Assembly: GCF_002309535.1 (NCBI RefSeq)
Contig: NZ_CP023275.1
Location: 2,728,001-2,792,000, forward strand
Length of the DNA: 64,000 nt
Source of the DNA: Sulfurospirillum diekertiae
Lineage (GTDB): Bacteria > Campylobacterota > Campylobacteria > Campylobacterales > Sulfurospirillaceae
Reading direction: 5' to 3'
Made by a program: the position numbers and the translations under genes. Shown here in pieces: positions 10,309 to 35,071 of this stretch; within the stretch, counting starts at the first letter, position 1; each line of letters starts with the position of its first letter. Below the pieces are notes generated by a model. The model searched no databases and was not told the DNA's origin. It saw nothing but the letters and a program-made list of their open reading frames with translations.

Positions 10309-10763
10309 TACCTCTCTTTGATTCTATTTTTACACGCTTTTGGGGCAAAGCCCGAAAAGCTACGTTGCACTGGGCACTAAAGCTTGCCTCGTACGAGGCA
10401 GAACTTATCTCTTATCCTCTTTACATGTAAAACATTTCACTCACATTTTATCATCTCTACGTTTGGGGCAAAGCCCGAAAAGCTACGTTGCACTGGGCAC
10501 TAAAGCTTGCCTCGTACGAGGCAGAACTTATCTCTTATCCTCTTTACATGTAAAACATTTCACTCACATTTTATCATCTCTACGTTTGGGGCAAAGCCCG
10601 AAAAGCTACGCTGCACTGGGCACTAAAGCTTGCCTCGTACGAGGCAGAACTTATCTCTTATCCTCTTTACATGTAAAAAGTCATTCACACTCATTTGTAA
10701 CATCTCTATTTTTTGGGGAAAAGTCCGAGCAGAACGTATCTTCCAACCCTTTTACATGTAAAC
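10309..10763. repeat. 123-bp tandem array of a two-hairpin repeat element
   Basis: The gap between uraA and dxr is filled by three nearly identical 123-base units (the GGGGCAAAGCCC core begins at 10342, 10465 and 10588) plus a fourth decayed unit at about 10710-10763. Each unit holds hairpin 1 (GGGC-AAA-GCCC), a conserved linker starting AAAAGCTACGTTGCACT, hairpin 2 (GCCTCG-TA-CGAGGC), CAGAA and one TTACATGTAA palindrome. Differences between the three units are few (one T/C in the linker), so the expansion is recent. Period 123 is divisible by three, which keeps an accidental frame open. Confidence 0.93.
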
Positions 10764-11834
10764 CTAAAGGGCTAAGCAGTAACGCCTCACTTCGCGGTCG
10801 ATCTCAAAGACCTCATCCAAACTTTTAGGAATTGCATCTTCAAAGTGTCGATAGGCTTTAATCGTTCGCTCTGCTAGTTCTAAAATATTAATCTCTTGAT
10901 TAAAAAACTTCGCGATACCCACTTCATTGGCAGCATTGATGACAACACCACGTGTTGGGTTGGCAAGAACATCGTCTTTGATCTCCCAAATAGGATAACG
11001 TGCCGCCTCAATAGGGCGAAAAGAGAGAGAACCAATAGATGCTAAATCAAGGGAAGGTAAAATAGGCTCTTCCACTTCACCTACCAAAGCAAAGGCAATG
11101 GGAAGTTTCATATCCGCAACCGCTAAATGAGCTGTGGTGCTACCATCTTTAAAATTTACAAAGGCATGTATTAGGGATTTTGGTTCGATGATGGCATCGA
11201 GTCTATCAACACCAAAAAGCCATTTAGCTTCTAAAAGCTCAAAAAGCTTGTTGGTCATCGTCGCACTATCAATGGTTATCTTTGCGCCCATACTCCAATT
11301 GGGATGTTTAAGGGCGTCTTGAAAGGACATCGTTGAGAGTTTTTCAAGGGGAGTATCTCGAAAAGCACCCCCACTTGCCGTAATGGTCATACCACTTACG
11401 GGGCGTTTTCCTAAAAGATACCACAAACCAAAATGTTCACTGTCAATGGGGGTAATATGAGAGGTATCCAACAGATGCCCAGCAACCACGAGGGATTCTT
11501 TATTGGCAAGTGCCAAACGTTTTCCAAGTCGTAGTGCTTCGATGCTAGGAGCTAACCCCACAAATCCAACCAAAGCATTGACAACCAAATAACTCTGTGT
11601 TTTTTGTAAAAGCTCTAAAATACCCTCTTTACCAACAAATACATTGGTGTGATTGACTAAAGTACGATCTTTCGCGTCACTAATGGCGACATATTTTGGG
11701 TGGTGCTCTTTAATTTGTTCATTGAGAAGTGCAATATTTTTACCCGCAACAAGGGCTTCCACCGTAATACCAAAACGTTTGGCAATGATCAGCGCATTGA
11801 CGCCAATGGAGCCTGTTGATCCTAGGAGTACCAC
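10764..11834 (-). CDS. dxr: 1-deoxy-D-xylulose 5-phosphate reductoisomerase
   Basis: Catalyses the NADPH-dependent conversion of DXP to 2-C-methyl-D-erythritol 4-phosphate, first committed step of the non-mevalonate isoprenoid pathway. The 356 residues include the nucleotide-binding LLGSTGSIG at the N-terminus, LANKESLV, DSEHFG (metal-binding Asp/Glu region), ASGGAFRD, HPNWSMG and NAANEVGIA. The start is GTG placed directly after the TAA of cdsA, so the genes are coupled. The cdsA-dxr pairing is common in this phylum. The stop lies next to the decayed end of the repeat array. Confidence 0.96.
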   Translation of the reverse strand: MVLLGSTGSIGVNALIIAKRFGITVEALVAGKNIALLNEQIKEHHPKYVAISDAKDRTLVNHTNVFVGKEGILELLQKTQSYLVVNALVGFVGLAPSIEALRLGKRLALANKESLVVAGHLLDTSHITPIDSEHFGLWYLLGKRPVSGMTITASGGAFRDTPLEKLSTMSFQDALKHPNWSMGAKITIDSATMTNKLFELLEAKWLFGVDRLDAIIEPKSLIHAFVNFKDGSTTAHLAVADMKLPIAFALVGEVEEPILPSLDLASIGSLSFRPIEAARYPIWEIKDDVLANPTRGVVINAANEVGIAKFFNQEINILELAERTIKAYRHFEDAIPKSLDEVFEIDREVRRYCLAL

Positions 11835-12599
11835 TTACGCGAGCCCTCGAAGCAGGATGACCATGACCACGCCACCAAAAAGGTAACCATCAAGTCTGTC
11901 TAACATGCCACCATGTCCCGGAAAGAGCGTGCCACTATCTTTTAGCCCAGCCTCTCGTTTGAGATAACTCTCAAAAAGATCGCCAAATACAGATGCCACA
12001 GAGGTCACAAACGCAATGAAAGCTGAAAGCCACAATGGAATCAAAAACGTTCCATACAACGCACCTGCCACTGTCGCAATCACCACACCGCCGATGACAC
12101 CTTCGAGTGTTTTATTGGGCGAAGTTGGAGAAAAAGGTGTTTTACCAATGCTTTTACCCACGCAATACGCCCCCGTATCGGTAAGAGCTACAACGATCAC
12201 GAGCCATACCAAAACGGACATACCAAAATCGTGGTAAAGAGCGTAGAGAAACAGCATCGAAACCGAAGGGTATAAAAAAGGTGCAAGAAGTTTATAATTC
12301 ACATTTTTAGTGTAAGCCATAACAGCTAAAAATCCAATCAGTGCTAAATAGATCAAATCATCAGGATTGGGATAGACAAATGCCGCTAACCATAAAAGAA
12401 CCGCATACACATACAGTTTATTGTCTTTGACATCAAAAAGGTTCATTGCCTCATAAAAAGCGAGTAAATACATAGCACCAAGAATGAGCCATGTGAGGAG
12501 TGCGTTGTTTAAAAATGCGACCACTATAGCAAATGCGAGCATCACGAAGCCCGTGAAAACGCGCTGCTTATTTGATTCGTAGAGTGCTTTAAAGTTCAT
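11835..12599 (-). CDS. cdsA: phosphatidate cytidylyltransferase
   Basis: Makes CDP-diacylglycerol from phosphatidic acid and CTP at the inner membrane, the entry to phospholipid synthesis. About 254 residues, seven or eight helices, with the C-terminal signature containing SYLKREAGLKDSGTLFPGHGG and DRLDG, which holds the metal-binding acidic residues. I start at the ATG 12599 because the family begins shortly before an R-x-x-TG segment; an in-frame ATG at 12638 would add 13 residues and has no better ribosome site. Followed without gap by dxr. Confidence 0.94.
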   Translation of the reverse strand: MNFKALYESNKQRVFTGFVMLAFAIVVAFLNNALLTWLILGAMYLLAFYEAMNLFDVKDNKLYVYAVLLWLAAFVYPNPDDLIYLALIGFLAVMAYTKNVNYKLLAPFLYPSVSMLFLYALYHDFGMSVLVWLVIVVALTDTGAYCVGKSIGKTPFSPTSPNKTLEGVIGGVVIATVAGALYGTFLIPLWLSAFIAFVTSVASVFGDLFESYLKREAGLKDSGTLFPGHGGMLDRLDGYLFGGVVMVILLRGLA

Positions 12600-12656
12600 A
12601 GGGACTCTTTTAAGGATGTTGTCTAAAGAGGCAATCATAGCAAAGTCAAGGTGAGG

Positions 12657-12995
12657 CTAAGCTTTAACGTCTAAATGGCCATCGTGTACTGCAGGAACTT
12701 CCTCTTCTTCGGCTTTAGAATGCTCTTTCATCTCCTCATGTTGCTTCATTTGCTCTTCTGTAGCACCATTTTCTTCTTCACTTTTTTGGCGCTCATGCTC
12801 ATTTTCAGGATCAATTTTATAGGTCTCTTCGGCAGGCCTAACATCTTCCACAATCTCTTCTTTTTCATTTTGCATTGCTTCAGCAATCATGCTTTGCATT
12901 TGAACACTGTTTTGGTAGTCCATCTGTTTTGCTGCTTGTACCGTTACCATTTGGTTCGCATAAATGACATTTCCAATAGCACCAACACTTGCCAT
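12657..12995 (-). CDS. small acidic coiled-coil-type protein, unknown function
   Basis: A 112-residue protein with no signal peptide. The N-terminal third (Ala/Val/Met/Gln-rich, 'QMVTVQAAKQMDYQNSVQMQSM') looks helical; the rest is very rich in Glu and Lys and probably disordered or helical. It sits between the NFACT gene and cdsA. I recall a small coiled-coil gene in the same position in Campylobacter jejuni, which supports it being real and conserved. Ribosome site AGGAGG lies upstream of the ATG. No function can be assigned. Confidence 0.72.
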   Translation of the reverse strand: MASVGAIGNVIYANQMVTVQAAKQMDYQNSVQMQSMIAEAMQNEKEEIVEDVRPAEETYKIDPENEHERQKSEEENGATEEQMKQHEEMKEHSKAEEEEVPAVHDGHLDVKA

Positions 12996-13013
12996 AAAAG
13001 CCTCCTTATTTTT

Positions 13014-13271
13014 ACACGCTTCTTAGGCAAAGCCTCAAAAGCTACGTTGCACTAGGCACTAAAGCTTGGCTCTACGAGCCAGAATACTCCACTACTCTTT
13101 GTAAATTTTTAAGGTTTGATACTCTTCATAAGCAACGTTACTATTTTAACACGTTTCTTAGGCAAAGCCTCAAAAGCTACGTTGCACTAGGCACTAAAGC
13201 TTGGCTCTACGAGCCAGAATACTCCACTACTCTTTGTAAATTTTTAAGGTTTGATACTCTTCATAAGCAAC
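13014..13271. repeat. tandem duplication (period 135) of repeat element plus the 3' end of the NFACT gene
   Basis: Bases 13014-13136 and 13149-13271 are identical except for about one position in the left box. Each unit has the ACACG box, hairpin 1 (AGGC-AAA-GCCT), the AAAAGCTACGTTGCACT linker, hairpin 2 (TGGCTC-TAC-GAGCCA), CAGAA and then the last 45 bases of the NFACT coding sequence. The unit at 13092-13136 is therefore a detached copy of the gene's C-terminal codons. Confidence 0.93.
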
Positions 13272-14561
13272 ATTCGCTCCATCAAAGGGTTTGACGTTTT
13301 TACGTTTCGTATAATCGACCAAATAGCCACCTTTTTGAGCCATGCTAAACTCCACGCACAGTTTTGCGGCAAATATGAGAACAGATTCAGGAACGTTCTG
13401 TTTTTCAGTGCAAATAATCACATGAGAGGAAGGCATATCTTTTACATGTAACCATATATCGCTCTTTTTCGCTTCTTGTAAAAGTGCGATGTTTCCTTTT
13501 TCATTTTTACCAAGCAGTATGCGATAACCCTCTAACAAAAAAGTCTCATAAAGATTGCTCTCATCGCCTTTTTGCTTTGATTTGCGCTGTTTGGGTACTA
13601 AAATCTGTATCTCTTCAGGGTCATGCGCCGCGTTAATCACACCTACCATTCGCTCCAAGAAGAGTCGTTTCTCGTCTAAGTTCTCTTTTTGGCGATGCAC
13701 CGAGAGCGCTTTTTGGCGCAGTTTTTTTGACTTTTTAAAGAGCATATTCGCCGCCATTTGCGGTGTTTGTGCTTGGGGAAGGTTAATCGTCACTTCATTG
13801 CCTTCAAAATCCACCAGTGTCACCGCTTCTTGATACCCTTTGATCGTGTTGGTATGCAAATGTGCTAAAACCAAGGTTGCCTCTTTTTGTGCCTCGTCAC
13901 TTTTCACCATCAACTCTTCTTCATTCTCCAGGGCATCAATCGCCTGAACAAGCTTCGTGATCTTTTTTTCCACCTGCGCAATTTTCTGTTTTTTGATCTC
14001 TTCAAGCTTTACATGTAAACGTTTTTCATACGAGGCTTTCAGATACTCTTCGATACTTCCACCCAGCTCAAATGGCTTCTCTTTAAGCTCTTTAGGCGGT
14101 AATTTTTCCAGTATTTCACCCACCTTAACACTGCGAAAAGAGACACTGGCATCAATATGACGCATTGCCTCTAAAACCACCTCATTTTCATCTAAGATAA
14201 TCGCGTTGGTATTGCGCCCCGTGAACTCTAACTGTAACGTTGTACGCATCGCTTTATAACTCGAACTCGCCATCACCCCAATGCGCCAAATACGATTCCC
14301 CTCTTCCACTTCCATGCACTCAATCTTCGCATTTGAAAATCGCTTGGCAAGCAGAACATCAAAGGGTGCGGTGTAACGCTTAGCTTGTTTGAAATCCTCT
14401 TTAAAAAACATATACGAATCCCCACGCCCAAGGTCAATAAAAAGTGGTTCTCCCGCTTCAAAAATAATGCGTAAGACAGAGTCATCCACACGGTAAATCG
14501 AAGAAATTTTATGGTACTGCTTTAAATAGTCATTGATACAAACAAGTTCACTGTGTTTCAT
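13227..14561 (-). CDS. NFACT-family protein (RqcH/FbpA-like)
   Basis: NFACT proteins bind the 60S/50S-peptidyl-tRNA complex in ribosome-associated quality control; bacterial RqcH recruits tRNA-Ala to add C-terminal alanine tails. The ~444-residue protein has an N-terminal NFACT-N segment (with 'LEFTGRNTNAIILDENEVVLEAMR'-type core near residue 115-140, cited here by parts), a central coiled coil (about 180-310) and a C-terminal NFACT-R/DUF814 domain with SDIWLHVKDMPSSHVII. Older annotations call it fibronectin-binding protein. I start at ATG 14561, which is spaced 4-6 bases from AAGAGA. Two TTACATGTAA palindromes in the gene encode Leu-His-Val. The 3' end is duplicated downstream. Confidence 0.88.
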   Translation of the reverse strand: MKHSELVCINDYLKQYHKISSIYRVDDSVLRIIFEAGEPLFIDLGRGDSYMFFKEDFKQAKRYTAPFDVLLAKRFSNAKIECMEVEEGNRIWRIGVMASSSYKAMRTTLQLEFTGRNTNAIILDENEVVLEAMRHIDASVSFRSVKVGEILEKLPPKELKEKPFELGGSIEEYLKASYEKRLHVKLEEIKKQKIAQVEKKITKLVQAIDALENEEELMVKSDEAQKEATLVLAHLHTNTIKGYQEAVTLVDFEGNEVTINLPQAQTPQMAANMLFKKSKKLRQKALSVHRQKENLDEKRLFLERMVGVINAAHDPEEIQILVPKQRKSKQKGDESNLYETFLLEGYRILLGKNEKGNIALLQEAKKSDIWLHVKDMPSSHVIICTEKQNVPESVLIFAAKLCVEFSMAQKGGYLVDYTKRKNVKPFDGANVAYEEYQTLKIYKE

Positions 14562-14574
14562 ACATCTCTTTTTC

Positions 14575-14830
14575 ATTTTGATACGCTTTATAGGCAAAGC
14601 CTAAAAAGCTACGTTAGCCACTAAGGCACTAAAGCTTGCCTCTGCGAGGCAGAATGATGGTGTTCGTTTTCAAATGATCATACGGTTCTATAAGTAAAGC
14701 TCTAAAAACTACGTTAACACTGAGTTTCCTTCGGCAAGATGCCCGCGCACCTTTGGTGCTTTTGCCTCTGTGATTGTATTTATTTTGCCAATGGTACTGA
14801 ATCTTGCTTCTTATAAGGCAGAATTTTTCA
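14575..14830. repeat. two-hairpin repeat element, one intact and one decayed copy
   Basis: In the gap between glycerate kinase and NFACT, an intact copy at about 14578-14655 has the ATACGCTT box, hairpin 1 (TAGGC-AAA-GCCTA), the GCTACGTTAGCCACTAAGGC linker, hairpin 2 (GCCTC-TGC-GAGGC) and CAGAA. A decayed, longer copy runs from about 14685 (CTATAAGTAAAGC, ACTACGTTAACACT) to about 14825 (GGTACTGAATCTTGC ... AAGGCAGAAT). The decayed copy's end contains the stop codon of the glycerate kinase gene. Confidence 0.85.
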
Positions 14831-15956
14831 AGGCTTTGATCAGTCGAAAAATCTCTTTAGTACTCTGTTTTATCAGCTTCTGAGCGCGTTCTTTTTCCAT
14901 TGCCTCTTCCAAACTCATCGGGTAGCGCATCACGGAGAAAAGTGCATCCACACCCTCGTGTTCTTCAAGCTCATCGGCAATGCCGCCCCCTAAGGCAATG
15001 AGGGGCACATCTGCTTTTTGACAACGCTTTGAGACGCCACTGAGTACTTTGCCCATCAAAGATTGCCTATCAATGCGCCCTTCTCCCGTGATGACGAGCG
15101 TCGCATTTTTAAGGTGGTCATCAAAGCTGATCTGATCTAAAATAATCTCAATGCCTGAGCGAAGTTTGGCGGCCAAAAAGGCTTGCATACCGCCACCCAT
15201 ACCACCCGCAGCACCTGAACCTACGTGCATTGCCACATCTTTTCCCAGTGTAGCTTTCAGTATATCCGTAAACTGTTTCATTCCTGCGTCAAGGCGTTCG
15301 ATCATCGCCTCATCGGCCCCTTTTTGCGCGGCATACACATGCGCTGAACCACTGGGTCCATACATGACATTATCGACATCGCACGCAACAATAAATTCAC
15401 ATGCTTTAAGTTCAGGCAAGACATGGCTTTCATCCACATGATGCACACGCTCCAAAATAGCGCCACCCAACCCAAGTTCTTTGCCAGATTTATCCAAAAA
15501 GCGATACCCAAGTGCTTGAAGCATGCCAAGGGCGGCATCATTGGTCGCACTGCCACCAATGCCGACAATAAACTTCTGACACCCTCTCTCAATCGCATCT
15601 TTCACCATTTCACCCACACCAAACGTTGTGGTCACAAGCGGGTTACGTTTCTCTTTGGGCACAAGCGGGAGCCCTCCTGCTTGTGCCATCTCAATAACAG
15701 CCGTGATACCATCTTCCAAAATGCCATACTGCGCGCTGATAGGATTCATCAACGGATCATGCACGTTACATGTAAGGATTTTTCCTTTGACATTTTGCAT
15801 GATCGCGAAAAGCATTCCCTCACCACCATCGGCAATATAACAGACATGGACATCCGCTTCAGTGTAAACCTCTTTAATACCCTCTTCTATCCACGCTGAG
15901 AGTTCCTGAGAACTTGCACATCCCTTAAATGAATCAATTGCTAAAACCACTTTCAT
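14811..15956 (-). CDS. glycerate kinase
   Basis: Phosphorylates D-glycerate with ATP (GlxK/GarK type, usually giving 2-phosphoglycerate). The 381 residues open with VVLAIDSFKGCASSQE, the family's N-terminal motif, and include GDGGEGM-like ADGGEGM, GIGGSATNDAALGMLQALG and GEGRIDRQSLMGK. Length matches the family. The ATG overlaps the stop of ogt by four bases. The last residues (NSAL) and stop codon fall inside a decayed two-hairpin repeat, so the C-terminus may have been altered by the repeat. A TTACATGTAA palindrome encodes Thr-Cys-Asn near residue 62. Confidence 0.93.
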   Translation of the reverse strand: MKVVLAIDSFKGCASSQELSAWIEEGIKEVYTEADVHVCYIADGGEGMLFAIMQNVKGKILTCNVHDPLMNPISAQYGILEDGITAVIEMAQAGGLPLVPKEKRNPLVTTTFGVGEMVKDAIERGCQKFIVGIGGSATNDAALGMLQALGYRFLDKSGKELGLGGAILERVHHVDESHVLPELKACEFIVACDVDNVMYGPSGSAHVYAAQKGADEAMIERLDAGMKQFTDILKATLGKDVAMHVGSGAAGGMGGGMQAFLAAKLRSGIEIILDQISFDDHLKNATLVITGEGRIDRQSLMGKVLSGVSKRCQKADVPLIALGGGIADELEEHEGVDALFSVMRYPMSLEEAMEKERAQKLIKQSTKEIFRLIKALKNSAL

Positions 15957-16408
15957 CGATATTTCTGCTCTAATGCTAATAAATACTCTTTACGCCACAA
16001 TCCTCCACTATACCCACCAATACCGCCATCTTTGGCAATGACACGATGGCAGGGAATCACAATGGCAATTTTATTTTTTCCGTTGGCATTCGCAACCGCG
16101 CGCGTGGCTTTAGGATGCTTCAACAGTTCCGCTTCGAGACTGTATGAAATGGTCTCACCATAAGGTATGCCTTGAAGGACATGCCATACGCTTTCTTGAA
16201 AAGACGTTCCTTGAGGGTGCAATGGCACTTCAAACGTTTTGAGCTTGCCTGCAAAATAAGCCTCTAACTCGTGTTTGAGCTGTTCAATATGCTGATTAGA
16301 TCCTTCTAAAACGTCCCCATTCTCGTCAAAATCAAGCGCACAAATACCGCGCTCATCCGCAGTGATTAACAACATACCCACAGGCGAAGAAAAAGTGCAG
16401 TGTACCAT
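15953..16408 (-). CDS. ogt: methylated-DNA--protein-cysteine methyltransferase
   Basis: Suicide repair protein that removes alkyl groups from O6-alkylguanine. The active-site motif IPCHRVI is present (Cys near residue 119), followed by GGYSGGLWRKEYLLALE, and the preceding helix-turn-helix-type segment IPYGETISYS...HPKATRAVA is typical. 151 residues is the short, Ogt-like form without an Ada regulatory domain. Its ribosome site lies in the last codons of the upstream acetyltransferase gene, so GNAT-ogt-glycerate kinase form an operon. Confidence 0.95.
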   Translation of the reverse strand: MVHCTFSSPVGMLLITADERGICALDFDENGDVLEGSNQHIEQLKHELEAYFAGKLKTFEVPLHPQGTSFQESVWHVLQGIPYGETISYSLEAELLKHPKATRAVANANGKNKIAIVIPCHRVIAKDGGIGGYSGGLWRKEYLLALEQKYR

Positions 16409-16409
16409 G

Positions 16410-16862
16410 CTAGCTCCTTAGTACTTTGCGCATACAGACGCTGTTTTCCATCCCCACATAAGGTGCATAATTGGGAATGACCGCATACCCCATTTTGGTA
16501 TAAAGGGCAATTGCTTCGGGTTGACCCTTACCCGTTTCCAATTGAGCATACAAAAAACCACATTCTTCTGCCCACGCGTGCAACTCCAAAAGGAGTCTTG
16601 ATGATAGACCACGCCTACGATAGTTGGGCTGAACAAACATGCGCTTGATCTCAACCGTTGTATCATCAATCTTTTTAAAACATCCGCATGCAACAGGCAG
16701 ATTATCTTCATAACCGATTAATGCGGTTTCAATAGGATCTAGCACATTGTGTTTGTCATACAGCGCTTGCTCTTTACCATAACGCCTATTAAGCTCTAAA
16801 TCCAACGCATGCGTAAGAGCGCAAAAATCTTCATGCATGTTGGTTGTTTTACATGTAAACAT
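16410..16862 (-). CDS. GNAT-family N-acetyltransferase
   Basis: A 150-residue single-domain acetyltransferase using acetyl-CoA. Motif A is VQPNYRRRGLSSRLLLELHAWAEE (pattern Q/R-x-x-G/A) around residue 86-108, followed by LETGKGQPEAIALYTKMGY, which matches motif B of the family. Substrate unknown. The start codon overlaps a TTTACATGTAAA palindrome (codons 2-5 read Phe-Thr-Cys-Lys); AAGG is seven bases upstream of the ATG. A second ATG at codon 9 is possible but has no ribosome site. First gene of the leftward operon with ogt and glycerate kinase. Confidence 0.85.
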   Translation of the reverse strand: MFTCKTTNMHEDFCALTHALDLELNRRYGKEQALYDKHNVLDPIETALIGYEDNLPVACGCFKKIDDTTVEIKRMFVQPNYRRRGLSSRLLLELHAWAEECGFLYAQLETGKGQPEAIALYTKMGYAVIPNYAPYVGMENSVCMRKVLRS

Positions 16863-16966
16863 TGAAAAACCTTGGATGATTTCTTATTATTATACCCTCT
16901 TTGCATAATTTTTGAGCAACCCAGTGGTGACAAAACGTGGTATCATTTTCTATCAAGGAGTCACGT

Positions 16967-17368
16967 ATGGCACATCTTTTCACTTATGGATCACTTATGT
17001 TTGAAGACGTCTGGAATAGACTGATCAAAGGAAATTATCTCTCACAACAAGCAAGCTTGGCAGGCTATGCAAGACGTTCCGTCAAAGGAGATGAATACCC
17101 CGTTATTTTTAAAGCCAATGAACTGGTAGAAGGAGTCGTTTATTACGATATCAATGAAGAAGATATGGCTATTTTGGATGCCTTTGAGGGTGAATATTAT
17201 CAACGTACAGAAGTAGAACTTCTGGTAAAAAATGAGCCCATCCAAGCCTGTGTGTATGTTTTAAAAGAGAAGCACTTTGATATTATCGACCCTAAGCCTT
17301 GGAGTGAAGCACTTTTTGCAACCGAGGGTATCAAACGCTTTTTAGCACACTACAAAGGGTTTGCATAA
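16967..17368 (+). CDS. gamma-glutamylcyclotransferase-like (AIG2 family) protein
   Basis: About 133 residues with the AIG2/GGCT fold signature: LFTYGSLM at the N-terminus (substrate-binding loop), a central EGVVYYDINEEDMAILDAFEGEYYQRTEVEL containing the likely catalytic Glu, and the C-terminal YVL segment. Family members cyclise gamma-glutamyl amines or amino acids; the substrate here is unknown. The ATG at 16967 has AAGGAG seven bases upstream; a GTG 30 bases earlier is in frame but unsupported. Confidence 0.85.
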   Translation: MAHLFTYGSLMFEDVWNRLIKGNYLSQQASLAGYARRSVKGDEYPVIFKANELVEGVVYYDINEEDMAILDAFEGEYYQRTEVELLVKNEPIQACVYVLKEKHFDIIDPKPWSEALFATEGIKRFLAHYKGFA

Positions 17369-17406
17369 TTCACCCCCTTCATTACGAATTTTGAGTAAAA
17401 TTTTTG

Positions 17407-17412
17407 TACAAT
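17407..17412 (+). promoter_or_regulatory. -10 box of the Crp/Fnr regulator gene
   Basis: TACAAT preceded by T-rich sequence, 28 bases upstream of the ATG. A TTACATGTAA palindrome (17422-17431) lies between it and the start codon, covering the ribosome-binding region (AAAGG). Confidence 0.4.
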
Positions 17413-17440
17413 AAAGCATTCTTACATGTAAAGGTAAATA

Positions 17441-18058
17441 ATGCTGAGTTTGAACGAGTTTGAATTTGCTAAAGCCTTAAGTAGCGAAGAATTTGAATAC
17501 CTTATGCACCATGCAAAACGCGTTTCAATTCCTAAAAATACCATACTTTTTTACCAAGAAGATATTTGCAAAGATATTTTGCTTTTAGGCAAAGGCGAGA
17601 TAGAACTTTATATGTATGGCGAAAACGATAAAAAAATCCCTTTGTATGCGCTCAAAGAGGGAGAACAATGCGTCATTAACACTTCAAGCACAATCTCTCA
17701 AACACCCGCCATTGGTACTGCACAAAGCTTGAGCGATGTTGAGGGGTGGATGGTCAGCGAAGAGGTCGTTAAGCATCTAATGCACCAATCCCCCACATAC
17801 CTCAACTATGTTTTTTCACTCTTTACGATCAAACTTGATGCCCTAGCTACACTCATTCAAGACATCAAATTTAAAAAACTCGATAGCCGCATTCTAGAAT
17901 GGCTCAGAACACATCATTCAAACCTTGTACAAGCAACGCATGAAGAAATTGCGGAGGCATTAGGAACATCGCGCGTTGTGGTGAGTCGCGTACTCAAAGA
18001 CCTCGAAAAACAAAATATCATTCGTCTCCATCGTAAAGAAATAGAAATTTTGTCATAG
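17441..18058 (+). CDS. Crp/Fnr-family transcriptional regulator
   Basis: A 205-residue regulator with an N-terminal cyclic-nucleotide-binding-type beta-roll (about 15-125) and a C-terminal winged helix whose recognition region is THEEIAEALGTSRVVVSRVLKDLE (about 165-188, given as segments EEIAEALGTSR and VVVSRVL). The N-terminus has none of the clustered cysteines of FNR, so it is not a [4Fe-4S] oxygen sensor of that type. In this phylum relatives include NssR, which activates nitrosative-stress genes through TTAAC-N4-GTTAA sites. A closely similar palindrome lies directly downstream, ahead of the next gene, which is its likely target. Confidence 0.9.
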   Translation: MLSLNEFEFAKALSSEEFEYLMHHAKRVSIPKNTILFYQEDICKDILLLGKGEIELYMYGENDKKIPLYALKEGEQCVINTSSTISQTPAIGTAQSLSDVEGWMVSEEVVKHLMHQSPTYLNYVFSLFTIKLDALATLIQDIKFKKLDSRILEWLRTHHSNLVQATHEEIAEALGTSRVVVSRVLKDLEKQNIIRLHRKEIEILS

Positions 18059-18062
18059 ATTT

Positions 18063-18076
18063 GTAACGTATGTTAC
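18063..18076 (+). promoter_or_regulatory. palindromic Crp/Fnr-type operator, centred near -42
   Basis: GTAAC-GTAT-GTTAC is a perfect inverted repeat four bases after the regulator's stop codon. It matches the NssR-style half-site spacing. A TATAAT at 18100-18105 puts transcription start near 18112, so the operator centre (18069.5) falls about 42 bases upstream, the classic position for a class II Crp/Fnr activator. The -10 is seen in the sequence; the binding protein is inferred. Confidence 0.65.
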
Positions 18077-18132
18077 TGACAAATAAAGCTTTTTTGTTTT
18101 ATAATAACCAAAATCAAAATAAAGGATTCAAA

Positions 18133-18360
18133 ATGAAATGCAATGTAGGAAAAACAGACAAGATGATTCGCGCGATTGCAGGTATTGCTGTCATTATCGT
18201 AGGAGTGATCTACAACAGTTGGTTTGGATTGATTGGTGTCGTTTTATTAGGAACAGCCCTTATTCGCTTTTGTCCAGCGTACCTCCCATTTTCGATCGAT
18301 ACCTCCAAAGGTGATGAAGGTGGCTCTTGCGGTGGTGGCGGTTGTGGTTGCGGCAAATAA
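18133..18360 (+). CDS. small membrane protein, DUF2892/YgaP-TM-like, Cys-Gly-rich tail
   Basis: A 75-residue protein beginning MKCNVGKTDKMIRAIAGI, which is the pattern of the DUF2892 inner-membrane family, with two hydrophobic segments (about 12-30 and 33-52) and a tail GGSCGGGGCGCGK that could bind a metal or be oxidised to disulfides. DUF2892 segments are often fused or linked to rhodaneses and to sulfur or nitrosative stress. Start chosen at ATG 18133 with AAGGA upstream; the frame is open further upstream but would run through the promoter. Likely activated by the adjacent Crp/Fnr regulator. Confidence 0.8.
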   Translation: MKCNVGKTDKMIRAIAGIAVIIVGVIYNSWFGLIGVVLLGTALIRFCPAYLPFSIDTSKGDEGGSCGGGGCGCGK

Positions 18361-18422
18361 CCATTTTTTAATACTGCATGTAAAACAAAAATAGCTTATA
18401 AAATTACAAGCTATTCATTTCC

Positions 18423-18450: not shown

Positions 18451-18481
18451 CTCTCTCTTTTTTTCTTAAACCTTTTTTTGC

Positions 18482-18487: not shown

Positions 18488-18520
18488 ACCCCTATTTTAC
18501 ATGTAAACAAAAGGCATACC

Positions 18521-25057: not shown

Positions 25058-25067
25058 CTAAACGTAA

Positions 25068-26403: not shown

Positions 26404-27657
26404 ATGGAATCCACTTACACTATTTTTTTAGCCACGCTCAAAGAGAACAAAGAACATGCCGATCTTTATAAACTCATCAGCGAGCTTACTTTTGAACTTT
26501 CACGTAAAAAAATTCAACGCCTGAAAGACGAAGTGAATATCAACAATCGTATAGGAGAGCTATTTGAGCTCTATTGTAAAGCACTACACGATGAGGGACT
26601 CAAAACATCTCGTGCTATTAGTAGTGTCATCGATGGTCTTTTAAAAGCAACCACTCATGAGAAAGAGGCATTTTTATATAAAAGTATTTATGAAAAAGAG
26701 CAGCTAGAAAAGAGTATTTATACACAAAAACAACAAATTCGCGCAACACTTGCAGATACTTTTAACACCATAGAAACACATATCGTATCAATACAACCTG
26801 AAACACAACAAAATGCCTTGACAGCAGTACATGACACGAAACTTCGTGGAATTGAAATGCTCGGAATTTTAAAAGAGACAACGGCAGAGGCACTATTAAC
26901 TACTCTTGAGAAGGGCAGTGATATTGCAGATACGATTCATGAAATCACTAAAAATCTTACATTTCAGACCATTCATGAAGGTGATTTTACAAAACAGCGC
27001 ATGATCAATATCTCCAGTACAATTATTGGCGCGAGTATTGAAATTGCAGATGAAGACTTAGGACATGCCAAAGATATTTTAGATGGCTCTATCAATGGTG
27101 TAAGAGAAGGTATCACGAAAGCGATTGAGAAGTTTAAAAATGATCTTAAATACGCACCAACAGATGCAATGGAAGGACTCCTTGAAACAGATCTTTCAGA
27201 GCTTCGTAAAGACCTTGTGCGCATTGACGAACAGTTTATCACTCTCTTAGAGGTTCTTGCTTCTCAGAGTGAAGGTATCTCAGCTAGTCTTGTTAAAGAG
27301 ATGATCAAAGAGATGACGAGTTCAACGGTCAAAATTAAACGAGCCGCTAATGATGCCAAAGAGGTCATTGGTGAGCGTATAGAACAACTTAAGGCCGAAG
27401 CTTCAGTCTTTGAAAAAACCTTTAAAGACAAAGCTGAGAAAAAACTCGAATCACTCAAAAAAGATGTCAATGAATTTGAGAAAAAAGCCTCTGCGAAAGT
27501 GGAATCATTTAAACAATTTGAATTTGAAAACGATACAGCCAAACAAGTCGCACAAGAAGCGAAAAAATTAGGGTTTCGTGCATGGGAAGTAGCAAAAAAT
27601 ATGATGGATGGCGCCGTAAAGGGGGCTAAAGAAGCCATGAAAAAAGAGGACAAATAG
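26404..27657 (+). CDS. large helical/coiled-coil protein of unknown function
   Basis: 417 residues, no signal peptide or membrane segment. Almost wholly helical in character: an N-terminal domain (about 1-60), a central part with repeated Ala/Gly/Glu-rich amphipathic helices (DTIHEITKN, AKDILDGSINGVREGITKAIEKF), then a Lys/Glu-rich coiled coil (about 290-380) and a tail GAVKGAKEAMKK like that of phasin or apolipoprotein-type surface-binding helices. I do not recognise the family with certainty. Likely co-transcribed with moaC and the DUF493 gene. A terminator hairpin overlaps the stop codon. Confidence 0.8.
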   Translation: MESTYTIFLATLKENKEHADLYKLISELTFELSRKKIQRLKDEVNINNRIGELFELYCKALHDEGLKTSRAISSVIDGLLKATTHEKEAFLYKSIYEKEQLEKSIYTQKQQIRATLADTFNTIETHIVSIQPETQQNALTAVHDTKLRGIEMLGILKETTAEALLTTLEKGSDIADTIHEITKNLTFQTIHEGDFTKQRMINISSTIIGASIEIADEDLGHAKDILDGSINGVREGITKAIEKFKNDLKYAPTDAMEGLLETDLSELRKDLVRIDEQFITLLEVLASQSEGISASLVKEMIKEMTSSTVKIKRAANDAKEVIGERIEQLKAEASVFEKTFKDKAEKKLESLKKDVNEFEKKASAKVESFKQFEFENDTAKQVAQEAKKLGFRAWEVAKNMMDGAVKGAKEAMKKEDK

Positions 27658-27667
27658 CCCTCTTTTT
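27641..27667 (+). terminator. Rho-independent terminator
   Basis: AAAAAGAGG / CCTCTTTTT overlapping the last codons of the coiled-coil gene; symmetrical A and T runs let it serve the convergent DUF4405 gene too. Confidence 0.75.
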
Positions 27668-27688
27668 AGCTTTACATGTAAAGGTCTT

Positions 27689-28198
27689 TTATGGCATATA
27701 GGGTGCCGTAAAAACAATATTGAGAATATCATCGCTTGTTCTATCATTGGCTTTTGCAATTTCTGAAACGGATTGTTTACTTGAAGCAATAATCTGCTTA
27801 TCTGCCAATATTTTAACCATCATCACTTCATCTAAATCCACAAATGCAGCTACTTTGGAAAGTGGCGCATTCATCATCGTCCCAATAATTTTACTTTTTG
27901 GATTAATGCCTTTTTCTTGTGGGTTCAATAACGGTGTAACGATAAATGCAGAAATAACTAAAAATCCAAAAAAGATAGAGATAAGCGTTGAGCGTTTTTT
28001 AAAATAAGTGACAAATCCATTCCAATTTTTGAGCAAGTGCAAACAAGAAATAGCGACAAAGGCAAAACCTAACCAAATATGCAGTGCCTCACTGGAGAGC
28101 ATACGAATTTTGAAATACATCATGACACCCGTAATGGAAACAACTACAAACATAACCGTTAATAACGCACTTAATATATTTCTGGGGATAACGTTCAT
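27689..28198 (-). CDS. DUF4405-type membrane protein with soluble C-terminal domain
   Basis: 169 residues: three hydrophobic helices (about 7-28, 38-56, 72-93) with two His in the second and third helix regions (ALHIWLGF and SCLHLL), the pattern of DUF4405/cytochrome-b561-like domains that may bind heme. The C-terminal 65 residues (SKIIGTMMNAPLSKVAAF...) resemble the helix-turn domains found after such membrane anchors. No partner dehydrogenase is adjacent. AAGGAG precedes the ATG. Confidence 0.75.
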   Translation of the reverse strand: MNVIPRNILSALLTVMFVVVSITGVMMYFKIRMLSSEALHIWLGFAFVAISCLHLLKNWNGFVTYFKKRSTLISIFFGFLVISAFIVTPLLNPQEKGINPKSKIIGTMMNAPLSKVAAFVDLDEVMMVKILADKQIIASSKQSVSEIAKANDRTSDDILNIVFTAPYMP

Positions 28199-28255
28199 CT
28201 ATAACTCCTTAATTTCGTTTGGAAGTATAGATAATCTATGTTAATCCTTTGTTAA

Positions 28256-28504
28256 TTACTCAATGCCTTGTGAGTGCATAAACATTACTTTATCTGCAAC
28301 CATTTTCACTTTAATGTACTGTTTTTCATCACCCCAAGTACAGTCACTCATCCCCGCAAGTGAATCACATTTCGTTGCTTTTCCTAAGATATCGGTTACT
28401 TGAGTGTAGCTCATGCCCACTTGAATCTTGTCATAATTCTCTTTGCTCAGCTTTGAGCACCCTATAAAGATAAGCAACACTAAAGCCATCATAATATATC
28501 GCAT
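28256..28504 (-). CDS. small lipoprotein, BamE/DUF3862-like
   Basis: About 82 residues with signal peptide and lipobox FIGC (Cys near residue 17), then one SmpA/OmlA-like domain: YDKIQVGMSYTQVTDILGKAT is the typical 'G-M-t-x-x-x-V-x-x-l-l-G' pattern, and YIKVKMVADKVM the closing strand. Two Cys (KCDSL, DCTWG) could form a disulfide. The ATG at 28504 has AAGGAG five bases upstream; the GTG two codons earlier overlaps the ribosome site. Confidence 0.82.
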   Translation of the reverse strand: MRYIMMALVLLIFIGCSKLSKENYDKIQVGMSYTQVTDILGKATKCDSLAGMSDCTWGDEKQYIKVKMVADKVMFMHSQGIE

Positions 28505-28623
28505 GCTCACTCCTTGATTCGATCTTGTAATAGACTAGCATATTTTTACTGTTTTTTGACTTTTTGATCTACGATAGATGACAGTGATAGAGTGAGAAAA
28601 GATATCTAGAAGTTTATGACGAA

Positions 28624-28652
28624 TAAAAAAAGAGAGGCCATAAGACCTCTCT
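28624..28652 (-). terminator. terminator of the DUF3373 gene
   Basis: AGAGAGG / CCTCTCT stem with an eight-base loop; on the minus strand it is followed by a T-rich run (CTCTCTTTTTTTATTC). Confidence 0.85.
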
Positions 28653-28664
28653 AGGAAGATTAGA

Positions 28665-30170
28665 TTAATATCTGTATCTTAAAGACAATCGTAAATCTTG
28701 AGCTGTTTTAACTGCCCCTGGTGTTGAATCAACATCCATTGGAGTACCTGTCCAACCAAAGAAAGTATCACTACCAGTATAAGCATAATCAATATAAACA
28801 TAGCTAAGTTGTGCTGTCAAGTTTTTACCGACAACTGGCATAATATAGTAGAGCTCATAGGCATTACCACGTGCTGCAAGTTTAGATCCTGCTAAAGTAT
28901 CCTCACCATAGGTAAAGCTTCTCCAGTATTTGCTACCATGATTATACTCAAGACCAAGTCTTTGACCTTTCATAATACCTGGAACTTGAACACCTGTATA
29001 AATTGAAGAACCAAATTCTTTATCTGAAGAACCAAGCATACCAGCCATAGAAACTAATCCAGAAGAAGATATAGCACCCAATTGATTATTATTTGGATCT
29101 GTCTTGCTAAATGCATAAGAGAGGAAGAAAATACTATCATCCAAGAAATCACTAATGCCGTCACCAATACCATTAACTTGTAATGATAAAGCACCTCCAG
29201 TCATATCACCAACATCAGCAAAATTAAAATATGGTTTTTGAACATACGTCAATCCGCTACTAGTATAAACTGGTGTCATAGCTATACCCTGAACATTCAT
29301 ATCCATCATATTTTTTGCAACAAAGTAATTACCCATTAACTTATACTGACCATTGTCAAAGAATTGAACAATTAAACCTGCTAAATCCATATTTGGAGTT
29401 TGATCATCATTAACATACCCTGGATTAAAGCCCATGCTACTCATATTCATTGAATATGCCCCAGTCGTATTTGAGAATCCTCGACCTAAACATAATTTGG
29501 CATAAAGACCTGAGATACCAGTAACTTTATCGAAGTCAAATCTAAAGCTAGCACCATCAAATTCCATATTGATATTATGGCTAATTGGTGAAGCAGGGTT
29601 TTCATTATCATTTCTTAGATTTGCCAAGAAACCATCAACAGATGGGCGACGACCAAATGAAGCGCTATAATGTACATCACCCATATCACCAGTATATAAG
29701 AAATAAGCTTCTCTTAAACGAATATTTGAATCATTCGGTTTTTGAGAATCATACCAATCAAATGTTTGAAAATAACTAGTACTACTTATATTAGTTTGAC
29801 CAAATGCTTTATATGCTGCCAAAGATCCCTTGAATACTAAATTGTCAGCTGGCTGTGCGCCCATACCAAGAATAAGTTTATTGGTCCAAACACCGTTGTC
29901 TTGTTTATCGGCACCTTGAATTTTGTAATCTACGTAATCATATGCTGTTCTAAAATCAACATTCCATTTAATATTATCACCTGCATCATGTGCTTTGATC
30001 TCAGAAACTTGAGCCCGAAGTGCATCTACATTGATTTTTGATTGAGCATCTTTTAGCTCTGCCATTTGCGCTTTTAACGCCTCTACTTCTTGCTTGAGTG
30101 AATCATCAGCAGCAAATGCTGAAGATGATAATGTAGCTCCGATAAGCAATGGAGCAATAAATTTCTTCAT
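28665..30170 (-). CDS. DUF3373-family outer-membrane beta-barrel protein
   Basis: A 501-residue exported protein: signal peptide (MKKFIAPLLIGATLSSSAFA), short coiled coil (about 25-60, LKQEVEALKAQMAELKDAQ) and a long beta-rich barrel ending in Tyr-Arg-Tyr. This is the layout of DUF3373 proteins and other coiled-coil-tethered porins of Campylobacterota; substrate unknown, with metal, arsenate or small-anion uptake only guesses. It is followed upstream on the same strand by the two heme-less cytochrome-like genes, 40 bases away. Confidence 0.85.
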   Translation of the reverse strand: MKKFIAPLLIGATLSSSAFAADDSLKQEVEALKAQMAELKDAQSKINVDALRAQVSEIKAHDAGDNIKWNVDFRTAYDYVDYKIQGADKQDNGVWTNKLILGMGAQPADNLVFKGSLAAYKAFGQTNISSTSYFQTFDWYDSQKPNDSNIRLREAYFLYTGDMGDVHYSASFGRRPSVDGFLANLRNDNENPASPISHNINMEFDGASFRFDFDKVTGISGLYAKLCLGRGFSNTTGAYSMNMSSMGFNPGYVNDDQTPNMDLAGLIVQFFDNGQYKLMGNYFVAKNMMDMNVQGIAMTPVYTSSGLTYVQKPYFNFADVGDMTGGALSLQVNGIGDGISDFLDDSIFFLSYAFSKTDPNNNQLGAISSSGLVSMAGMLGSSDKEFGSSIYTGVQVPGIMKGQRLGLEYNHGSKYWRSFTYGEDTLAGSKLAARGNAYELYYIMPVVGKNLTAQLSYVYIDYAYTGSDTFFGWTGTPMDVDSTPGAVKTAQDLRLSLRYRY

Positions 30171-30209
30171 CTTTTTTTTACCTTTTTAAGTAAGAATTAT
30201 TTTACACAA

Positions 30210-30548
30210 CTAGCAAGACGGAACGTTGCCGCTATCGCTTGCAAACTCAACACAGAAATCTCTAATATCTGGCATAAATTTCTCAAATTTATCGCCTTTT
30301 AGAAAGCCATCTAAACCTGGATATTTTTTGGAATACTCAGCAACAAATTTCTCTGCTTTACCATCAAAAAGTGCTTTCCACTCTGCTTGAGTATGTTGTG
30401 TTGCGAATTTCGCACCATTCATTCCTGAACCATCTTTCATATACTTAAGATAGTACTTTTGTCCTTTTGCTGCATCTGCAAATGCAGATGTACTCATTAA
30501 CCCCAATACCAAGAATGCTGAAACAAGTAAACCGAAGACTTTTTTCAT
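30210..30548 (-). CDS. heme-less cytochrome-c-like periplasmic protein, copy 1
   Basis: A 112-residue protein: signal peptide (cleavage likely after AFA, residue 24), then GQKYYLKYMKDGSGMNGAKF, which lines up with the start of small c-type cytochromes but has MKDGSG where CXXCH would be. A QHTQAEW motif and a C-terminal FASDSGNVPSC follow; Cys99 and Cys112 may form a disulfide. Protein is identical to copy 2 (30784-31122) and related to the protein at 51148. The second ATG of ATGATG is best spaced from AAGGAG. Function unknown; association with sulfur-respiration genes suggests a periplasmic sulfur or redox role. Confidence 0.85.
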   Translation of the reverse strand: MKKVFGLLVSAFLVLGLMSTSAFADAAKGQKYYLKYMKDGSGMNGAKFATQHTQAEWKALFDGKAEKFVAEYSKKYPGLDGFLKGDKFEKFMPDIRDFCVEFASDSGNVPSC

Positions 30549-30783
30549 CATTTCTCCTTTCCAAAATTTAAATATGGAGTCATCATAACAAAAGTAAAAT
30601 AAATTTTAATTTAAAAAGTTAATTATTAGAAGAAATAAGTAAATATTATTTTTACTTTTCTTAAAAAATGAGGTTTAAAACTGAAAAGTAGCACTATTTA
30701 AGTAAATATTATTTAATTTTAATAATTGCTTTTCAGATAATTTTATTATTTATCTGAAAAGCATAAAAATATTGTAGAGAGAA
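30549..30783. other. AT-rich spacer between the tandem copies
   Basis: 235 bases, strongly A/T. Holds the terminator of copy 2 (30728-30762) and presumably the promoter of copy 1. Two similar AAGTAAATATTATTT stretches occur at about 30638 and 30700. Confidence 0.6.
30728..30762 (-). terminator. terminator-like perfect hairpin after copy 2
   Basis: Arms GCTTTTCAGATAA and TTATCTGAAAAGC (13 bp, perfect) around a nine-base loop, 22 bases after the stop codon of the 30784-31122 gene. Confidence 0.7.
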
Positions 30784-31122
30784 TTAACAAGACGGAACGT
30801 TGCCGCTATCACTTGCAAACTCAACACAGAAATCTCTAATATCTGGCATAAATTTCTCAAATTTATCGCCTTTTAGAAAGCCATCTAACCCTGGATATTT
30901 TTTTGAATACTCAGCAACAAATTTCTCTGCTTTACCATCAAAAAGTGCTTTCCACTCTGCTTGAGTGTGTTGTGTTGCGAATTTCGCACCATTCATTCCT
31001 GAACCATCTTTCATATACTTAAGATAGTACTTTTGTCCTTTTGCTGCATCTGCAAATGCAGATGTACTCATTAACCCCAATACCAAGAATGCTGAAACAA
31101 GTAAACCGAAGACTTTTTTCAT
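30784..31122 (-). CDS. heme-less cytochrome-c-like periplasmic protein, copy 2
   Basis: Encodes exactly the same 112-residue protein as the gene at 30210-30548; I see only about four synonymous base changes, so the pair arose recently or is kept uniform by gene conversion. The upstream regions differ: here AAGGATATAAC precedes the ATG, so the two copies may be regulated separately. Its upstream 318 bases separate it from the 5S rRNA gene and are very A/T-rich. Confidence 0.85.
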   Translation of the reverse strand: MKKVFGLLVSAFLVLGLMSTSAFADAAKGQKYYLKYMKDGSGMNGAKFATQHTQAEWKALFDGKAEKFVAEYSKKYPGLDGFLKGDKFEKFMPDIRDFCVEFASDSGNVPSC

Positions 31123-31440
31123 GTTATATCCTTATAATTTAAGTTGAACGCTCATAGTAACGCAAAGAGTCTAAAAGATAATTGAAAAAATAAAACTGTA
31201 TATATTTAATAATAATTATAATAAAAATAAATGATATTTAAATAATGAGTTTACAAAATTTTATTAAACAAAAGGGCAGCAGAATACCAAGAGAGATAAA
31301 GAGGTATATAAAGTGAAGAAGCGATCATATGATTGTTTATGATCAAATAATGATGAAACTTTGTATTGAGAATAATCAGAGGGAAAGCGCCTTTGAATAA
31401 GACGAGATAAAAGGTATGTTGTAAAAGAAAGAATCACGAA
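31123..31440. other. gap between small gene and 5S rRNA
   Basis: A/T-rich (especially 31190-31250). From about 31290 it becomes homologous to 37120-37272, downstream of the second 5S gene, so the rRNA-operon duplication includes about 150-180 bases of downstream flank. A GGGCAGCAGAATAC fragment at about 31274 resembles the end of the two-hairpin repeat. No gene seen. Confidence 0.6.
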
Positions 31441-31553
31441 CTGGCAGCGACCTACGTTTCCATCCCAGTAAGGGAAAGTATTATCGGCGATGAAGAGCTT
31501 AGCTTCCTGGTTCGAAATGGGACAGGGCGTTTCCTCTTCTCTATAGCCACCAG
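31441..31553 (-). rRNA. rrf: 5S ribosomal RNA (operon 1)
   Basis: The minus strand reads CTGGTGGCTATAGAGAAGAG at the 5' end and closes with GGTCGCTGCCAG; the terminal stem pairs. Last gene of rRNA operon 1. Identical over its length to the copy at 37273. Confidence 0.93.
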
Positions 31554-31695
31554 AATCGTGAATTAAATCTATGTCGTATTATAACGAAATAGGCTTAATT
31601 CACCATTCTTCAGGTGATTTTAGTATTGTCTAGTCAACAAAGCGCTTTTTACACTTAATAAGGAAGTGAAATAGCATTATCATACGTTATAATAT

Positions 31696-34605
<2,910 letters not shown>

Positions 34606-34828
34606 TTCGTATTCTAATGCACATTTCACTCCCTTATTAAATGTAAACCATCTAACAAGTTGTAAATTGTTTTTTTTGCGTTTTGTTGACTTTGACAATA
34701 ATAAATTAAATAACATTTAGACTAAAAAGTCTAATATAAAAACAACCACAATTGTTCTTATATTAGACGTTGTGTCCTCATTTTCACTAACAATGTCTTG
34801 ATACAATCTTTCACCACTTTTGATAAAA
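34606..34828. other. 23S-tRNA spacer (operon 1)
   Basis: 223-base A/T-rich spacer. Contains an inverted repeat GTCTAATATAA / TTATATTAGAC (about 34729-34768) that likely forms the RNase III-type processing stem around the 23S precursor. The same stem occurs in operon 2 with changes confined to its loop (CCACAATTG versus CTAAATTTG). Confidence 0.6.
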
Positions 34829-34904
34829 TGGTGGAGAATAGCGGGATCGAACCGCTGACCTCCTGCGTGCAAAGCAGGCGCTCTCCCAGCTGAGCTAATT
34901 CCCC
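34829..34904 (-). tRNA. tRNA-Ala (TGC)
   Basis: 76-base cloverleaf on the minus strand starting GGGGAATTAGCTCAGC, anticodon loop with TGC, T-loop GGTTCGATCC, and encoded CCA end. Part of the 16S-23S spacer of operon 1. Confidence 0.96.
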
Positions 34905-34905
34905 A

Positions 34906-34982
34906 TGGTGGGCTTAAGAGGACTCGAACCTCTGACCTTACCCTTATCAGGGGTACGCTCTAACCACCTGAGCTATAAGCCC
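34906..34982 (-). tRNA. tRNA-Ile (GAT)
   Basis: 77-base cloverleaf on the minus strand starting GGGCTTATAGCTCAGG, anticodon GAT, T-loop GGTTCGAGTC, and encoded CCA. One base separates it from tRNA-Ala. Confidence 0.96.
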
Positions 34983-35023
34983 CTCTATCTCTTACAACGC
35001 TCAAGAAGCTAAGCTCCTTTACC

Positions 35024-35071
35024 CTACGCTAACGCTAAGGTACTAAAGCCAGCTGACGTTGTCAGCAGAAT
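35024..35071. repeat. two-hairpin repeat element in the 16S-tRNA-Ile spacer (operon 1)
   Basis: Matches the second half of the repeat family: CTACGCTAACGCTAAGG, TACTAAAGC, then hairpin 2 as GCTGAC-GTT-GTCAGC and CAGAATC. The stem sequence is unlike the other copies but pairs fully. The first hairpin is not clearly present. Confidence 0.65.

What the first reader, a model, noticed from the sequence alone, without database searches (positions are those of the whole stretch)
10335..35071. Two-hairpin repeat family with compensatory stem changes
Copies in four places (10.34-10.76, 13.01-13.27, 14.58-14.83 kb and the 16S-tRNA-Ile spacer) share ACACGCTT, hairpin 1, the linker AAAAGCTACGTTGCACT, GGCACTAAAGCTT, hairpin 2 and CAGAA. 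Hairpin 1 is GGGC-AAA-GCCC, AGGC-AAA-GCCT or TAGGC-AAA-GCCTA. Hairpin 2 is GCCTCG/CGAGGC, TGGCTC/GAGCCA, GCCTC/GAGGC or GCTGAC/GTCAGC. Stems change on both sides while staying paired, the mark of a selected RNA or DNA structure. All copies have the same orientation and lie just after minus-strand genes or inside the rRNA transcript, so on the gene strand they would sit in 3' UTRs. I know of no named family that matches.
Basis: partly seen in the sequence, partly recalled or inferred. Interest (0 to 1): 0.78.

Follow-up and report, generated by a model that had tools for sequence, protein, structure and literature searches.

The report
Campylobacterota folded RNA repeat family
The repeats are real: they belong to a large family of small folded segments scattered between genes in sulfur-cycling relatives of Campylobacter, and some relatives carry the ribosome-landing signal of the next gene while one is built into the RNA of the enzyme RNase P.

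Summary
Observation confirmed and enlarged. The window holds six full copies, one good copy in a 16S-tRNA-Ile spacer, and remnants. The genome has 60 hits at E<=0.01; all 23 genus genomes carry 7-78. Paired stem changes are strong (96.7% of cells paired; 285 double changes against 61.8 in shuffles). Rfam has no match.

It is probably an RNA-level element. Copies favour sense orientation between co-directional genes (41 against 12 position groups). G-T exceeds A-C most in sense copies (87:10) and not in antisense ones (19:18); sense against all others, group permutation p=0.013.

A sister form (T2) in many Campylobacterota shares YTCT-hairpin-AGCTTTAGTG-hairpin and ends in a Shine-Dalgarno motif; 68 of 84 lie 4-11 nt before a start codon. 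A T2-type copy sits inside RNase P RNA at a helix tip in 10 of 21 genus loci.

Best reading: a dispersed self-folding intercistronic RNA module, REP/BOX-like in role. How it acts and spreads is not shown. RAYT mobilisation, intrinsic termination and SD sequestration were tested and not supported.

The parts
10332..10403 (-). F1 copy, first of the array upstream of the xanthine/uracil permease gene
   Evidence: R1 84.2 bits, E 3.3e-18
10455..10526 (-). F1 copy, array unit 2 (123-bp period); the same-species genome G060 has two units where G000 has three
10578..10649 (-). F1 copy, array unit 3
   Evidence: R1 69.9 bits
10700..10731 (-). Probable decayed fourth unit (hairpin remnant)
   Evidence: by eye; no R1 match
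13014..13084 (-). F1 copy between the NFACT/RqcH-like gene and a small gene
   Evidence: R1 80.1 bits; the site holds both modules in 14 of 21 genomes
13149..13219 (-). F1 copy, tandem duplicate of the previous one together with 52 bp before it
14581..14654 (-). F1 copy upstream of the NFACT/RqcH-like gene; best match in the window
   Evidence: R1 93.9 bits, E 1.5e-20
14638..14650 (-). Hairpin A (GCCTC/GAGGC) of the 14581-14654 copy
14617..14627 (-). Hairpin M (GCC/GGC, loop TTAGT) of the same copy
14609..14612 (-). GTAG tetranucleotide at the foot of hairpin B
   Evidence: GTAG there in 169 of 177 F1 rows
14586..14608 (-). Hairpin B, loop TTT
14685..14771 (-). F2 copy (GCACC/GGTGC hairpin, GTGTTAACGTAG, degenerate hairpin B)
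   Evidence: by eye; R1 partial match 14685-14718, E 0.046
14780..14823 (-). Decayed F1 remnant
   Evidence: R1 19.4 bits, E 0.0095
34995..35070 (-). Copy in the 16S-tRNA-Ile spacer of rRNA operon 1
   Evidence: R1 40.4 bits; a near-identical spacer copy in G060
40822..40872 (-). Same spacer element in rRNA operon 2, hairpin B missing
9055..10308 (-). Flanking gene: permease, PF00860
10764..11834 (-). Flanking gene: DXP reductoisomerase
12657..12995 (-). Flanking small gene, no Pfam match
13227..14561 (-). Flanking gene: NFACT (RqcH-like)
14811..15956 (-). Flanking gene: glycerate kinase

Best explanation
The repeats are copies of a self-folding RNA module of about 63-76 nt, found so far in Campylobacterota, that has spread into gaps between co-transcribed genes. 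Shown: hairpins A and B, joined by a linker with a conserved AGCTTTAGTG and a small hairpin M, stay paired while their sequence changes; copies are mostly sense and intercistronic; a sister form carries a Shine-Dalgarno motif at normal spacing before start codons; one copy is part of RNase P RNA. Inferred: in polycistronic mRNA the hairpins shield or mark the end of the upstream message, and in the SD-bearing form they also hold the next gene's ribosome site in an open stretch beside hairpin B. In the window's genus (taken for Sulfurospirillum from recall; no call names it) most copies (F1, F2) lack the SD end and would work as intercistronic hairpins like REP or BOX repeats. How new copies arise is unknown.
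For: Covariation: (285 double-change cells against 61.8 +/- 5.9 shuffled; slid versions at most 84), for T2/T3, for hairpin M. RNA strand: G-T against A-C cells 87:10 sense, 25:8 convergent, 15:4 divergent, 19:18 antisense; sense against antisense by row Fisher 4e-6, sense against all others by group permutation 0.013. Orientation: 41 sense and 12 antisense position groups, p 8e-5; T2/T3 62 rows sense and 1 antisense of 84. SD form: 68 of 84 T2 with a start 4-11 nt after GGAG, T3 1 of 21. RNA context: inside rnpB, rRNA spacer. Retention: same sites as G000 in G015 12/15, G013 9/15, G008 6/15 copies; the rqcH site.
Against: No transcript, processing or expression data. Antisense, convergent and divergent copies exist (12, 13 and 6 of 73 groups), and divergent and convergent rows also have more G-T than A-C. 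With one row per group the contrast weakens to median Fisher p 0.10 (sense against antisense) and 0.07 (sense against the rest). Two relatives between tRNA genes (L091, L302) are antisense to the tRNAs. The F1-T2 link is modest by score (R1 finds T2/T3-type copies at best 8e-6; R2 finds window copies only at 0.046). T2 was collected with a pattern holding its core, so the invariance of that core is partly by selection. Copies are absent at some sites in close relatives.
Confidence: 0.6

Rival explanations
1. GTAG-type REP sequences moved by a RAYT (Y1 tyrosine transposase): hairpin B is the REP and pairing is selected for single-strand DNA transposition.
For: GTAG at the foot of hairpin B in 169 of 177 rows; stem and loop sizes fit the published class; Y1 genes in 23 of 24 genus genomes.
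Against: R1 finds no element in 32 Y1 loci. Of the three own-genome Y1 genes, the one beside a gyrA-like gene has GGGGTCAGG inverted repeats on both sides and the other two have GGGTCAG motifs near them, resembling the TIR type of PMC3733652. No inverted dimers in the G000 list. T2/T3 lack GTAG there. The G-T excess varies with gene direction.
Confidence: 0.15
2. Selfish or neutral MITE-like repeats with no role; pairing is kept by quasi-palindrome correction or by spread of paired master copies.
For: Presence/absence and tandem-number differences between genomes; hairpin B losses; group-level G-T test only moderate.
Against: Sites kept across the genus, at rqcH mostly with one stem type; different paired stems at one orthologous site; G-T excess absent in antisense rows; fixed SD spacing in T2.
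Confidence: 0.2
3. A translational switch: the 5' YTCT pairs with the SD and closes a four-way junction that hides the ribosome site.
For: RNAalifold closes YTCT with the GGAG region; in T3 an AGAA remains there, also complementary (my reading).
Against: Pairing of YTCT with the SD region averages 0.21 in 71 T2, and the SD core is no more hidden than in 123 SDs without the element (unpaired 0.55 against 0.44); only 2 cells with double changes in this helix; the genes named so far share no function.
Confidence: 0.12
4. Binding site for a protein that reads the two GGA motifs flanking hairpin B in T2 (for example CsrA).
For: 3' GGAG in 78 of 84 T2 and in 0 of 21 T3, whose 5' motif lacks GGA (Fisher 5e-17).
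Against: The search pattern fixed part of the 5' motif; T3 mostly lies away from starts; F1 lacks the motifs; CsrA was not looked for.
Confidence: 0.08

Closest known systems
GTAG-tagged REP sequences (PMC3733652)
   Same: Short imperfect hairpin with GTAG at one foot, many intergenic copies, paired stem variants; the paper reports GTAG repeats in Sulfurovum sp.
   Different: Here the hairpin is one module of a 63-76 nt element with hairpin A and a conserved linker; no element at the Y1 loci tested, no inverted dimers in G000; the sister form lacks GTAG and carries an SD
BOX repeats of Streptococcus pneumoniae (PMC3049150, passages)
   Same: Modular, folded, co-transcribed interspersed repeats with slow turnover
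   Different: No terminal inverted repeats or common target duplication found here; SD-bearing form. Convergent-gene enrichment, reported for BOX, was not tested against a baseline here
ERIC and Correia elements (known to me from recall and a passage of PMC3049150)
   Same: Transcribed hairpin repeats that can alter mRNA decay
   Different: No resemblance known to me; sequences were not compared
Rfam release 15
   Same: None
   Different: No match to the window stretch 10250-14900 up to E 5; no match overlaps a T2/T3 copy of the ten loci

Membership tests
GTAG REP | GTAG tetranucleotide at one end of the stem-loop | tested here: met
   169 of 177 F1 rows; whether it is unpaired was not settled, as RNAalifold pairs its last G
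GTAG REP | Stem 5-13 bp, short loop | tested here: met
   hairpin B 11 modelled pairs, loop 3
GTAG REP | Flanks a RAYT gene | tested here: not met
   R1 over 32 Y1 loci (up to 1.5 kb flanks): only an 8.2-bit match, E 7.2
GTAG REP | Inverted (HH/TT) dimers predominate | tested here: not met
   close neighbours in the G000 list are on the same strand; one opposite pair about 250 bp apart in G060
MITE / BOX-like repeats | Terminal inverted repeats and target duplication | tested here: not met
   ends are TTCT and CGTGT; no flanking direct repeats above control in 62 copies except in tandem arrays; very short duplications cannot be excluded
Intrinsic terminator | Hairpin followed by a T run | tested here: not met
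   5 found against 4.5 expected, none on an F1 hairpin, one on the F2 GCACC hairpin read on the + strand
SD-sequestering leader | SD paired in the predicted fold | tested here: not met
Known Rfam family | Score near or above threshold | tested here: not met
mRNA-stabilising repeat | Alters decay of the linked mRNA | not testable with these tools
   needs RNA data

The most novel reading that the evidence does not exclude
A portable RNA domain of Campylobacterota: one ancestral self-folding module with a built-in ribosome site spread through gene leaders, tRNA and rRNA spacers and even into RNase P RNA, and is read by a common cellular partner (ribosome, nuclease or RNA-binding protein), making it a global post-transcriptional mark rather than a gene-specific switch.
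Probability: 0.25. Interest if true: 0.85.

Novelty: new variant of a known kind. Interest (0 to 1): 0.62.

Why it matters
It would be a structured interspersed repeat family spanning many genera of a phylum, with one form that includes the ribosome site and a natural insertion into RNase P RNA. That gives ready-made tests of what such repeats do: many leaders per genome, paired SD and non-SD forms, sense and antisense copies, and related species with and without the RNase P copy.

Tried and rejected
Promoter reading: the A-rich CGTGTnAAAAT after hairpin B looked like a -10 box, but it also follows copies that face gene ends, and promoter-like sites are not enriched (6 against 8.2). Terminator. 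RAYT-borne REP. Long target duplication: seen only in tandem arrays. SD sequestration. Pairing of the hairpin A strand with the B loop in T2/T3: the two motifs do not go together (18/27/36/24, Fisher 0.05 in the wrong direction). Plasmid or phage carriage of an F1 consensus: no match.

Rows left out: F1 covariation used hits with E<=1e-8 from the loci held (100 distinct rows, 177), not every copy. In one search three loci cut by contig ends were dropped, two G015 copies map to one G000 site, and some G000 partners are weak or F2-type hits. T2/T3 statistics used loci L272-L394, that is 80 of the 120 stretches plus loci. In one search an ORF running off a locus was accepted from 10 codons. In one search, 13 of 84 T2 and 5 of 21 T3 were dropped because leader or SD was not located. 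One search scored at most 24 candidates per genome, so its counts are lower bounds. The sort (40 F1, 19 F2, 3 other) is not used: its F1 pattern could also match the hairpin B loop; one search replaces it.
Full report
What was checked. Read on that strand it is TTCT - hairpin A - AAGCTTTAGTGCC..AGTGGCTAACGTAG - hairpin B (loop TTT) - CGTGT. A small third hairpin M lies in the linker: 142 of 162 rows with a recognisable loop form a full 3-bp stem (GCC/GGC 86, TGC/GCA 25, ACC/GGT 9, TAC/GTA 5 and others), against 9, 3 and 0 when the partner is slid. A covariance model R1 built from 15 copies finds 69 hits at E<=1 in the own genome, 60 at E<=0.01. A fuzzy motif sort of 62 of them gives 34 of this type (F1), 13 of a second type (F2) that shares GTGTTAACGTAG-hairpin B-CGTGT but has another front, 7 matching both patterns and 8 neither.

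Statistics. On 100 distinct F1 rows 96.7% of cells pair; 285 cells changed on both sides against 61.8 +/- 5.9 in shuffles; sliding the partner by one column drops pairing to about 50%. At one orthologous site (G000 300995, shared with G008, G015 and G013) hairpin B has four different sequences, three fully paired (G-T allowed) and one with two mismatches (L048, L160, L169, L212).

Conservation of sites. After the rqcH-like gene both modules are present in 14 of 21 genus genomes and at least one in 16, in most of them with a stem A of GGCTC/GAGCC type; tandem copies occur there in G000/G060, G005 and G015. Against the same-species genome G060, 47 of 62 G000 copies pair by order, strand and score (two of these pairs look wrong by offset, and some unpaired ones prove to be the same site). 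Where one genome lacks a copy the surrounding gap has usually changed too, and the direction of change is clear only at one site, before an RNase III-like gene (named from recall), where G006, G013 and G015 keep the element that G000 lacks. Site sharing with G000: G015 12 of 15, G013 9 of 15, G008 6 of 15 copies examined. G000 has three array units at the permease gene, G060 two.

DNA or RNA. Of 73 position groups the flanking genes are sense to the element in 41, antisense in 12, convergent in 13, divergent in 6 and undetermined in 1. G-T against A-C cells in hairpins A and B are 87:10 in sense rows, 19:18 antisense, 25:8 convergent, 15:4 divergent. G-T pairs are tolerated only on the strand that folds, so the loss of the excess in antisense rows points to the mRNA; the excess in divergent rows does not help this reading. 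Rows are not independent: sense against all others gives p 0.013 with labels permuted over groups; with one row per group the Fisher median is 0.07 (sense against the rest) and 0.10 (sense against antisense).

Relatives outside the genus. R1 also finds shorter relatives in other genera of the family and order. The commonest form, T2, is YTCT - hairpin A - AGCTTTAGTGAGAGGAATTT - hairpin B - AAAGGAGA; 68 of 84 are followed 4-11 nt after GGAG, mostly 7-8, by a start codon of an ORF of at least 45 codons, against 294 of 1474 for all GGAG on one strand of the same loci. In form T3 none of 21 has GGAG; it stands in tandem upstream of T2 in L296, L297 and L299 or mostly away from starts. Model R2 has hits in 62 of 218 genomes of the order, in 20 of 68 genera (lower bounds). 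Covariation in T2/T3 is again strong for hairpins A and B. Relatives also lie between tRNA genes: L091 and L302 between tRNA-Cys and tRNA-Ser but antisense to them, L305 after tRNA-Thr in sense.

Both forms in one genus. T2 with its SD stands before an ornithine carbamoyltransferase-like gene (named from its translation by recall) in six genus genomes looked at (L505-L508, L510, L511). Another T2-type copy lies inside the RNase P RNA gene of the own genome (RF00010, E 3e-84) as an unaligned insertion at a helix tip, which I call P12 from recall. R2 finds it in 10 of 21 genus rnpB loci, two of them weakly (0.012, 0.019): exactly the ten whose match is 403-410 nt long, while seven are 334-338, three 359-361 and one is cut. 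A stretch tolerated at a helix tip of a known RNA should fold on its own with its ends close together; this is the most direct sign that the module is an RNA domain.

Mechanism. I favour an intercistronic RNA module. Shown: a kept fold, transcribed settings in many cases, sense bias, SD at working distance in T2. Inferred: protection or processing of the upstream message, and exposure of the SD beside hairpin B (SD core predicted 55% unpaired in 71 T2 against 44% in 123 SDs without the element). How copies spread is open; no element was found in 32 Y1 transposase loci.

Known families. Rfam has nothing. By its GTAG foot hairpin B resembles GTAG REPs (PMC3733652: first part of section 4, section 16 and passages read), but the RAYT and dimer features fail. 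BOX repeats (PMC3049150, passages) are the closest in behaviour. PMC12306157, PMC2267715 and PMC3847290 were seen by passages only, and those passages do not mention it.

Noticed in passing
G000:C1:1265800-1265863 (L128:3401-3464): T2-type element inserted at a helix tip of RNase P RNA; found in 10 of 21 genus rnpB loci.
   Followed up: yes
window 34995-35070 and 40822-40872: The two rRNA operons differ in the 16S-tRNA-Ile spacer by absence of hairpin B between short GCGT repeats.
   Followed up: partly
window 13084-13219: 52 bp including the rqcH-like gene's 3' end is duplicated exactly between two element copies; several relatives show a similar gene-end copy after the element.
   Followed up: partly
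window about 10425-10436 and other places: The palindrome TTTACATGTAAA recurs beside many elements; at G000 2682329 the relative G060 has it where G000 has an F2 copy. Its frequency was not counted.
   Followed up: no
G000:C1:335392-336165: A Y1 transposase-like gene with GGGGTCAGG inverted repeats lies beside a gyrA-like gene (named from recall); similar 258-aa frames occur in other genus genomes, whose place was not checked.
   Followed up: partly
F2 copies, e.g. G000:C1:2682329: Several F2 copies are followed by a separate AGAGTTCT...AGAACTCT hairpin.
   Followed up: no
L091:1501-1563, L302:181-241: Relatives of the element lie between tRNA-Cys and tRNA-Ser, antisense to them, in two genomes of different families.
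   Followed up: partly
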